35,929 nucleotides of DNA, taken from the NCBI GenBank assembly GCA_021776215.1, contig JAJFGI010000393.1, positions 1-35,929 on the forward strand. The letters run 5' to 3'. The notes beneath the pieces are model-generated. The model saw only the letters and a list, made by a program, of their open reading frames with translations. It did no database searches and was not told the DNA's origin. Numbering within the stretch: position 1 is the first letter of the stretch; each line of letters opens with the position of its first letter. This DNA comes from Kiloniellaceae bacterium (lineage in GTDB: Bacteria; Pseudomonadota; Alphaproteobacteria; Kiloniellales; J153). The position numbers and the translations under genes were made by a program. Below are positions 10,577-11,133 of this stretch, one piece after another.

Positions 10577-10828
10577 TCATTGCGCCCGGTGGCGGATCGA
10601 ACCGCCGTCGGGGTAGCGTTTCTTCAGGTCGGCGATCTGGGCCTTGGTCGGCGGCTCTGTCCGGGGCGGACAGTTGGCCGCGATAAAGCCGTCGATCGCG
10701 TCGGTGATATCGGTCAGCGTGGCGGTCCAGAACTCGGATGCAGGCCAGCCGACCACGCCGCAGGCGCGGCGCTTCAGTTCTCTCAGGTCTTCGGCGAGGG
10801 TTCGGGATTCTCCCCCTCGCCGCCCACG
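10577..10828 (-). CDS. Phage_TAC_6-like tail assembly chaperone domain, predicted to be translated only as a -1 frameshift extension
   Basis: -1 frame after GGGAAAC reads RGRRGGESRTLAEDLRELKRRACGVVGWPASEFWTATLTDITDAIDGFIAANCPPRTEPPTKAQIADLKKRYPDGGSIRHRAQ*, stop at 10577-10579, 10 nt before the tape-measure ATG. No in-frame ATG. Confidence 0.8.
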   Translation of the reverse strand, partial: RGRRGGESRTLAEDLRELKRRACGVVGWPASEFWTATLTDITDAIDGFIAANCPPRTEPPTKAQIADLKKRYPDGGSIRHRAQ

Positions 10829-11133
10829 TTTCCCGGGTCGTCCTTGGGCATATGGGCGGTGAGTGCTTCCAGCATGGCATTGCCGAAAACCATGAATTCG
10901 TGCGGCTTCAGGTTGTTCCAGGCATTTTCCCCGTCACCATCGACAACGAAGCATTTGAGTGCTTCGCGCACGGCAACAGGCCCGCCGCCGGAAAGAAGGC
11001 GGTAGATCTCATGGAACGTCCCGGCCGCCATTGTGGCATCGAACCGCGCCAGGCCGTCCGGTGTTACGGCCAGCACCAGGTCCACGCCGCCGATCGTCAC
11101 GGCGATCTCACCTTTTGCCTTGTTGGCCGCCAT
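10783..11133 (-). CDS. GTA gp10-like tail assembly protein (zero-frame product)
   Basis: 116 aa MAANKAKGEIAVTIGGVDLVLAVTPDGLARFDATMAAGTFHEIYRLLSGGGPVAVREALKCFVV...; between major tail protein and tape measure. Confidence 0.85.
   Translation of the reverse strand: MAANKAKGEIAVTIGGVDLVLAVTPDGLARFDATMAAGTFHEIYRLLSGGGPVAVREALKCFVVDGDGENAWNNLKPHEFMVFGNAMLEALTAHMPKDDPGNVGGEGENPEPSPKT
10828..10834 (-). promoter_or_regulatory. -1 programmed ribosomal frameshift slippery heptamer G GGA AAC
   Basis: Plus-strand GTTTCCC at 10828-10834; GGA and AAC are in-frame codons 101-102 of the 10783..11133 ORF, giving X_XXY_YYZ in correct phase. Confidence 0.8.

What the first reader, a model, noticed from the sequence alone, without database searches (positions are those of the whole stretch)
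10577..11133. Hidden -1 programmed frameshift (GGGAAAC) creating a G/GT-type tail assembly chaperone fusion
The GTA gp10-like ORF (10783..11133, minus) contains G GGA AAC in the exact X_XXY_YYZ phase at codons 101-102 (plus strand 10828-10834). Slipping -1 opens an 83-codon extension, RGRRGGESRTLAEDLRELKRRACGVVGWPASEFWTATLTDITDAIDGF..., ending at 10577, 10 nt before the tape-measure ATG. That extension resembles the Phage_TAC_6/DUF2376 chaperone (GWPASEFW), has no in-frame ATG and is absent from the ORF track. Lambda G/GT uses the near-identical GGGAAAG. In RcGTA-like clusters these two domains are, to my knowledge, usually treated as separate genes, so this suggests frameshift coupling of the pair.
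Basis: partly seen in the sequence, partly recalled or inferred. Interest (0 to 1): 0.82.

Follow-up and report, generated by a model that had tools for sequence, protein, structure and literature searches.

The report
Frameshifted tail assembly chaperone pair
In this temperate phage of an alphaproteobacterium, a slippery spot near the end of one tail-chaperone gene very probably makes some ribosomes slip back one base and add a second chaperone domain, a long-known phage trick (as in lambda) that annotation misses here and that turns up, in the same phase, in about half of the related gene-transfer-agent clusters sampled.

Summary
The 116-codon ORF (11133..10783, minus) carries G_GGA_AAC at 10834-10828 in exact slippery phase. 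Slipping -1 opens 83 codons ending at 10577, 10 nt before the tape-measure ATG. The extension has no ATG or TTG; its only GTG (10756) would delete the first predicted helix. In 78 distinct loci of the same chaperone family (named Rhizobiaceae genomes and IMG/VR contigs), 75 keep an in-phase X_XXY_YYZ heptamer exactly 18 nt before the upstream stop. Its letters change (GGGAAAG/C/T, AAAAAAG/A) while place and phase stay, leading into a TAC_6-like -1 frame. The extension matches TAC_6 domains of gene transfer agents by profile comparison (hhalign 98%). So this is a lambda G/GT-type -1 frameshift: a new member of a known kind, in a temperate phage; the host's own GTA lies on another contig. The wider point is newer: in GTA-like clusters of 20 alphaproteobacterial families, 10 carry a strict heptamer in phase between g10 and TAC_6, against about 1 expected. 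The others mostly have an overlapping or nearby start. I found no paper saying this; papers treat RcGTA g10 and g10.1/g10.5 as separate genes. No product has been measured.

The parts
10783..11133 (-). gpG-like tail assembly chaperone (116 aa), PHROG_13724 family, remote relative of GTA gp10 (Phage_TAC_11)
   Evidence: phrog_13724 E=5.8e-16; hhalign of its family vs GTA gp10 98.8%; confident AF2 model, tail 102-116 disordered; structural neighbours in BFVD are tail assembly chaperones/TAC_11 proteins, weak E
10828..10834 (-). slippery heptamer G_GGA_AAC in X_XXY_YYZ phase (codons 101-102)
   Evidence: sequence and phase; same kind of site conserved in homologues
10577..10828 (-). -1 frame extension, 83 codons plus stop, TAC_6-like; fusion product 185 aa
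   Evidence: open frame; Phage_TAC_6 E=0.0025, below curated cut-off; hhalign 98.0% as a single sequence vs GTA TAC_6 profile; helical AF2 model
10792..10822 (-). possible stimulatory stem-loop starting 5 nt after the heptamer: CGGCGAGGG pairs with CCCUCGCCG
   Evidence: fold z = -2.0 (47 nt) and -3.0 (45 nt); not significant in an 81-nt fold (z = -0.85); not conserved across the family
11133..11555 (-). major tail (tube) protein, directly upstream
   Evidence: Phage_tail_2 E=6.6e-21; phrog_1407
8839..10566 (-). tail tape measure protein, directly downstream
   Evidence: phrog_10574 tape measure E=1.5e-43

Best explanation
A lambda G/GT-type programmed -1 ribosomal frameshift. Most ribosomes finish the 116-aa chaperone (gpG-like) at 10783. 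A minority slip on G_GGA_AAC at 10834-10828 and continue in the -1 frame to 10577, making a 185-aa fusion (gpGT-like) with a C-terminal TAC_6-like domain. By analogy with lambda, many G units coat the tape measure protein and the few GT units recruit the tail tube protein; both leave the finished tail. Shown: gene order, in-phase heptamer, coding extension, conservation of heptamer place and phase in homologues. Inferred: that slippage happens, its rate, and the chaperone roles.
For: Exact phase. 75/78 distinct loci of the family keep X_XXY_YYZ 18 nt before the gpG stop, with five different heptamers (GGGAAAG 62, AAAAAAG 5, GGGAAAC 4, AAAAAAA 3, GGGAAAT 1), so slipperiness rather than one peptide is kept. 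The -1 frame encodes the TAC_6-like motif W.P..FW (hhalign 98.7%). The base before the stop is C in 78/78 although TCC->TCA would keep Ser and create an ATGA start, so a coupled start is not being selected. The window's GTG would remove helix 11-26. The post-heptamer tail of gpG is disordered yet 13/14 identical in a homologue that is 66/102 identical upstream (Fisher P = 0.036), as expected of dual coding. Other alphaproteobacterial phages are described with -1 sites at this locus, Colossus with GGGAAAC itself (PMC3556154).
Against: No product seen. GGGAAAC may be less slippery than GGGAAAG in bacteria (A-site Asn rather than Lys tRNA; own knowledge; PMC5009743 names G_GGA_AAG as highly shift-prone in E. 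coli). Three family members have imperfect sites: GGGGGAG (2), GGGGAAG (1). Downstream structure is not conserved. The DNA of the closest homologue (P0002) could not be read.
Confidence: 0.9

Rival explanations
1. The TAC_6-like protein is a separate gene, started by termination-reinitiation at a non-ATG codon overlapping the gpG stop (CTG 10786, which forms CTGA with the stop) or just downstream (CTG 10777, GTG 10756).
For: Many GTA-like clusters do have ATGA/ATG overlaps here, and those without a heptamer almost all have a start overlapping or near the stop. The rhizobial phage phi2LM21 record annotates the downstream ORF from a CTG.
Against: No ATG/TTG and no Shine-Dalgarno; base before the stop is C in 78/78 family loci and never A; the heptamer would then have no reason to keep its place and phase.
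Confidence: 0.06
2. The heptamer is a chance feature or a by-product of G-K/G-N codons, and the extension is not expressed.
For: At this single locus chance gives an in-phase strict heptamer about 2.4% of the time; long -1 open frames are common here.
Against: Enrichment over other phases and over codon shuffles in 36 loci (26 vs 9 and 7; strict 24 vs 1.9 expected) and in 20 families (10 vs 1 and 1); TAC_6-like extension.
Confidence: 0.03
3. Transcriptional slippage by RNA polymerase rather than ribosomal frameshifting.
For: Some relatives have longer A runs: A8-A9 in GTAs of the host's own family.
Against: GGGAAAC in the window holds no run longer than three; most of the family has GGGAAAG.
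Confidence: 0.01

Closest known systems
Phage lambda G/GT tail assembly chaperones and their -1 frameshift (Levin 1993; Xu, Hendrix and Duda 2004, cited through PMC5009743)
   Same: Place between tube protein and tape measure; short G protein; in-phase heptamer near its 3' end; -1 extension without a usable start.
   Different: Domains belong to the TAC_11/TAC_6-like lineage; heptamer ends in C; product and ratio unmeasured here.
Caulobacter phages phiCbK and Colossus pre-tape-measure chaperones (PMC3556154)
   Same: Alphaproteobacterial phages with predicted -1 sites AAAAAAC and, in Colossus, GGGAAAC.
   Different: Large phages; homology to this family not tested here.
Sinorhizobium phage phi2LM21 p42/p43 and rhizobial prophages (PHROG_13724)
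   Same: Same G family; GGGAAAG in phase, TAC_6 in -1 frame.
   Different: Heptamer 18 nt before the stop instead of 45; annotated as two genes, the second from a CTG.
RcGTA g10 (tail chaperone 1, pfam11836) and g10.1/g10.5 (tail chaperone 2) (PMC11409702, PMC9765227)
   Same: Remotely homologous pair in the same order.
   Different: Described as separate genes; many GTA-like clusters use ATGA-type overlap, others carry in-phase heptamers. The R. capsulatus cluster itself was not read.

Membership tests
Lambda G/GT-type -1 frameshifted tail assembly chaperone | Lies between tail tube protein and tape measure gene | tested here: met
Lambda G/GT-type -1 frameshifted tail assembly chaperone | X_XXY_YYZ heptamer in phase near the 3' end of G with the extension in the -1 frame | tested here: met
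Lambda G/GT-type -1 frameshifted tail assembly chaperone | Slippery site and frame relation conserved in homologues | tested here: met
   75/78 distinct loci;
Lambda G/GT-type -1 frameshifted tail assembly chaperone | Extension has no efficient start of its own | tested here: met
   no ATG/TTG, internal GTG only, no SD
Lambda G/GT-type -1 frameshifted tail assembly chaperone | Fusion made at a few percent of G | not testable with these tools
   needs reporter or mass spectrometry
Lambda G/GT-type -1 frameshifted tail assembly chaperone | Stimulatory RNA structure (not required in all members) | tested here: inconclusive
   9-bp stem 5 nt downstream, z -2.0 to -3.0 in short folds, -0.85 in a longer fold; not conserved
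Pfam Phage_TAC_6 (PF09550), the extension | Score above Pfam gathering cut-off (23.4 bits) | tested here: not met
   18.6 bits; homologues in phi2LM21 (26.2) and RHph_Y3_1 (35.8) pass; remote homology by hhalign 98%
Pfam Phage_TAC_11 (PF11836, GTA gp10), the upstream protein | Score above Pfam gathering cut-off (27.8 bits) | tested here: not met
   no hit for the window protein; family profile vs GTA gp10 hhalign 98.8%, single sequence 76%
RcGTA-like gene transfer agent | Head-tail cluster without phage replication and lysogeny genes | tested here: not met
   same contig carries D5-type primase-helicase, CHC2 primase, methylases and an S24/HTH repressor; the host's GTA-like cluster is on contig C408

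The most novel reading that the evidence does not exclude
Programmed -1 frameshifting (in some lineages possibly transcriptional slippage on A runs) makes a fused g10-TAC_6 chaperone in many domesticated RcGTA-like gene transfer agents, including that of this host's own family. Other lineages have replaced it by ATGA-type coupling, so the so-called separate genes g10 and g10.1 would be two expression solutions for one ancestral G/GT system.
Probability: 0.6. Interest if true: 0.6.

Novelty: new member of a known kind. Interest (0 to 1): 0.48.

Why it matters
It restores a missing, probably essential tail protein to the annotation of this phage and of PHROG_13724 phages, where the upstream gene is listed as hypothetical and no fused protein is found in the protein database. 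It also gives a concrete, cheap test for gene transfer agents: whether their tail assembly still depends on a frameshift ratio, which would tell how far the tail module has been altered during domestication.

Tried and rejected
Distant DNA search of the region in 50,697 phage records: no match. Viral-contig scans with the window's own gpG and tube protein: no relatives. First genome scan with the two-member alignment A1: none. Tape-measure relatives L031-L034 have a different chaperone type upstream and were set aside. Protein search for natural single-frame fusions: none among 49 hits. PDB fold searches with both models: no meaningful match. Rfam: nothing. Trend that loci without a start carry heptamers more often: 9/10 vs 17/26, not significant (P = 0.22). 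Frame-specific conservation upstream of the ATG in the host-family GTAs: 0.55 vs 0.43 identity, too weak to use.

Full report
What is there. On the minus strand the order is tube protein (11555-11133, Phage_tail_2), a 116-aa ORF (11133-10783), then the tape measure gene (10566-8839). The 116-aa ORF contains CCG GGA AAC GTG at codons 100-103; GGGAAAC at 10834-10828 is in X_XXY_YYZ phase. The -1 frame runs on for 83 codons to a stop ending at 10577, 10 nt before the tape-measure ATG; the fusion would be 185 aa. There is no ATG or TTG in that frame; GTG 10756 lies inside the conserved motif, and the structure model places a helix (residues 11-26) upstream of it.

Is it more than chance at this site? 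Alone, only moderately. Codon shuffling gives a strict in-phase heptamer in the last 25 codons in 2.4% of cases, and 19 genes of the window hold three such in-phase sites. A long open -1 frame is common in this G+C-rich contig.

Is the extension a protein? Yes, most likely. Pfam gives Phage_TAC_6 at E=0.0025, below the curated cut-off. Against a profile of TAC_6 proteins from GTA-like clusters, the single sequence scores hhalign 98.0% over 66 columns, and the family profile 98.7%. The motif GW-P-x-x-FW-x-x-T is shared (in the window GWPASEFWTAT).

Conservation. The upstream protein belongs to PHROG_13724, found in rhizobial phages and prophages. Fifteen named Rhizobiaceae-type genomes and 80 IMG/VR contigs gave 78 distinct usable loci. 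In 75 of them an in-phase X_XXY_YYZ heptamer lies exactly 18 nt before the upstream stop: GGGAAAG 62, AAAAAAG 5, GGGAAAC 4, AAAAAAA 3, GGGAAAT 1; three have GGGGGAG or GGGGAAG. Many of these loci are close relatives, so the number is not a count of independent events; the change from GGGAAA to AAAAAA in Martelella, with place and phase kept, is the more telling fact. The base before the stop is C in all 78, though Ser TCC could become TCA and give an ATGA start without changing the protein. The more distant phages phi2LM21 and RHph_Y3_1 have in-phase GGGAAAG and GGGAAAC and TAC_6 domains above the Pfam cut-off in the -1 frame.

The window's nearest homologue (P0002, 68% identical) keeps 13 of 14 residues after the heptamer but 66 of 102 before it (P = 0.036), although that tail is predicted disordered. 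Dual coding explains this; its DNA could not be read.

Beyond phages. The window is not a GTA: the same contig has a D5-type primase-helicase, a CHC2 primase, methylases and an S24/HTH repressor. The host's GTA-like cluster is on contig C408. In that cluster and in six relatives of the same family, g10 and TAC_6 are in the -1 relation with A_AAA_AAA in phase; most also have an ATG overlapping or near the g10 stop, one (L027) has none. Over 36 loci with TAC_6 in the -1 frame (phages included), 26 have an in-phase heptamer within 90 nt of the stop, against 9 and 7 in the other two phases; strict XXXAAA/XXXTTT sites 24 against 1.9 by codon shuffling, maximum 6 of 300. Counting GTA-like clusters by family, strict sites are in phase in 10 of 20 families, against 1 and 1 in the other phases and 1.0 by shuffling, maximum 4.1 of 500. 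In some lineages the CCCTTTC site also encodes a conserved Pro-Phe of TAC_6, so part of that signal could be protein conservation. Loci without a heptamer nearly all have a start overlapping or close to the g10 stop, but the inverse trend is not significant on its own.

Literature. Frameshifting of tail chaperones is long known (PMC5009743, citing Levin 1993 and Xu 2004), including Caulobacter phages with AAAAAAC and GGGAAAC (PMC3556154) and Rhodobacter phages (PMC8601537). For RcGTA, PMC11409702 speaks of tail chaperone 1 (g10) and tail chaperone 2 (g10.5) and PMC9765227 of g10.1; searches for GTA together with frameshifting found no statement about this junction. The library lacks most subscription papers, so this is not proof of absence.

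Verdict. The case itself is a new member of a known kind; the wider GTA pattern is the part worth following.

Noticed in passing
window 11972-12430 (minus): A second in-phase run G_GGA_AAA_AAC lies 153 nt before the stop of the neck/tail-completion gene, whose -1 frame leads into the overlapping gene 11568-12170 (Tail_completion_gp17). Probably chance, but the 200-nt overlap with a GTG start is odd.
   Followed up: no
L052 (GTA-like cluster): g10 runs through A-rich KKREQKKK codons and TAC_6 lies in the +1 frame instead of -1; possible transcriptional slippage or a different solution.
   Followed up: no
L073, L155, L139: Family members whose site reads GGGGGAG or GGGGAAG at the conserved place; natural tests of how strict the slippery rule is.
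   Followed up: partly
L074-L081 (Martelella): Heptamer replaced by AAAAAAA/AAAAAAG at the identical place; L077 and L081 have strong downstream stems (z -3.7 and -2.2).
   Followed up: partly
window 5244-7757 (minus): 837-aa tail protein with a C-terminal T-even Gp38-type adhesin domain (PF05268, E=3.5e-6) in a siphovirus-like tail module.
   Followed up: no
L065 (S. meliloti psymB NZ_CP021802) and L066 (S. medicae pMl3): The same gpG/-1 TAC_6 pair with GGGAAAG sits on rhizobial plasmids, as prophage or remnant; the fusion is in neither annotation.
   Followed up: partly
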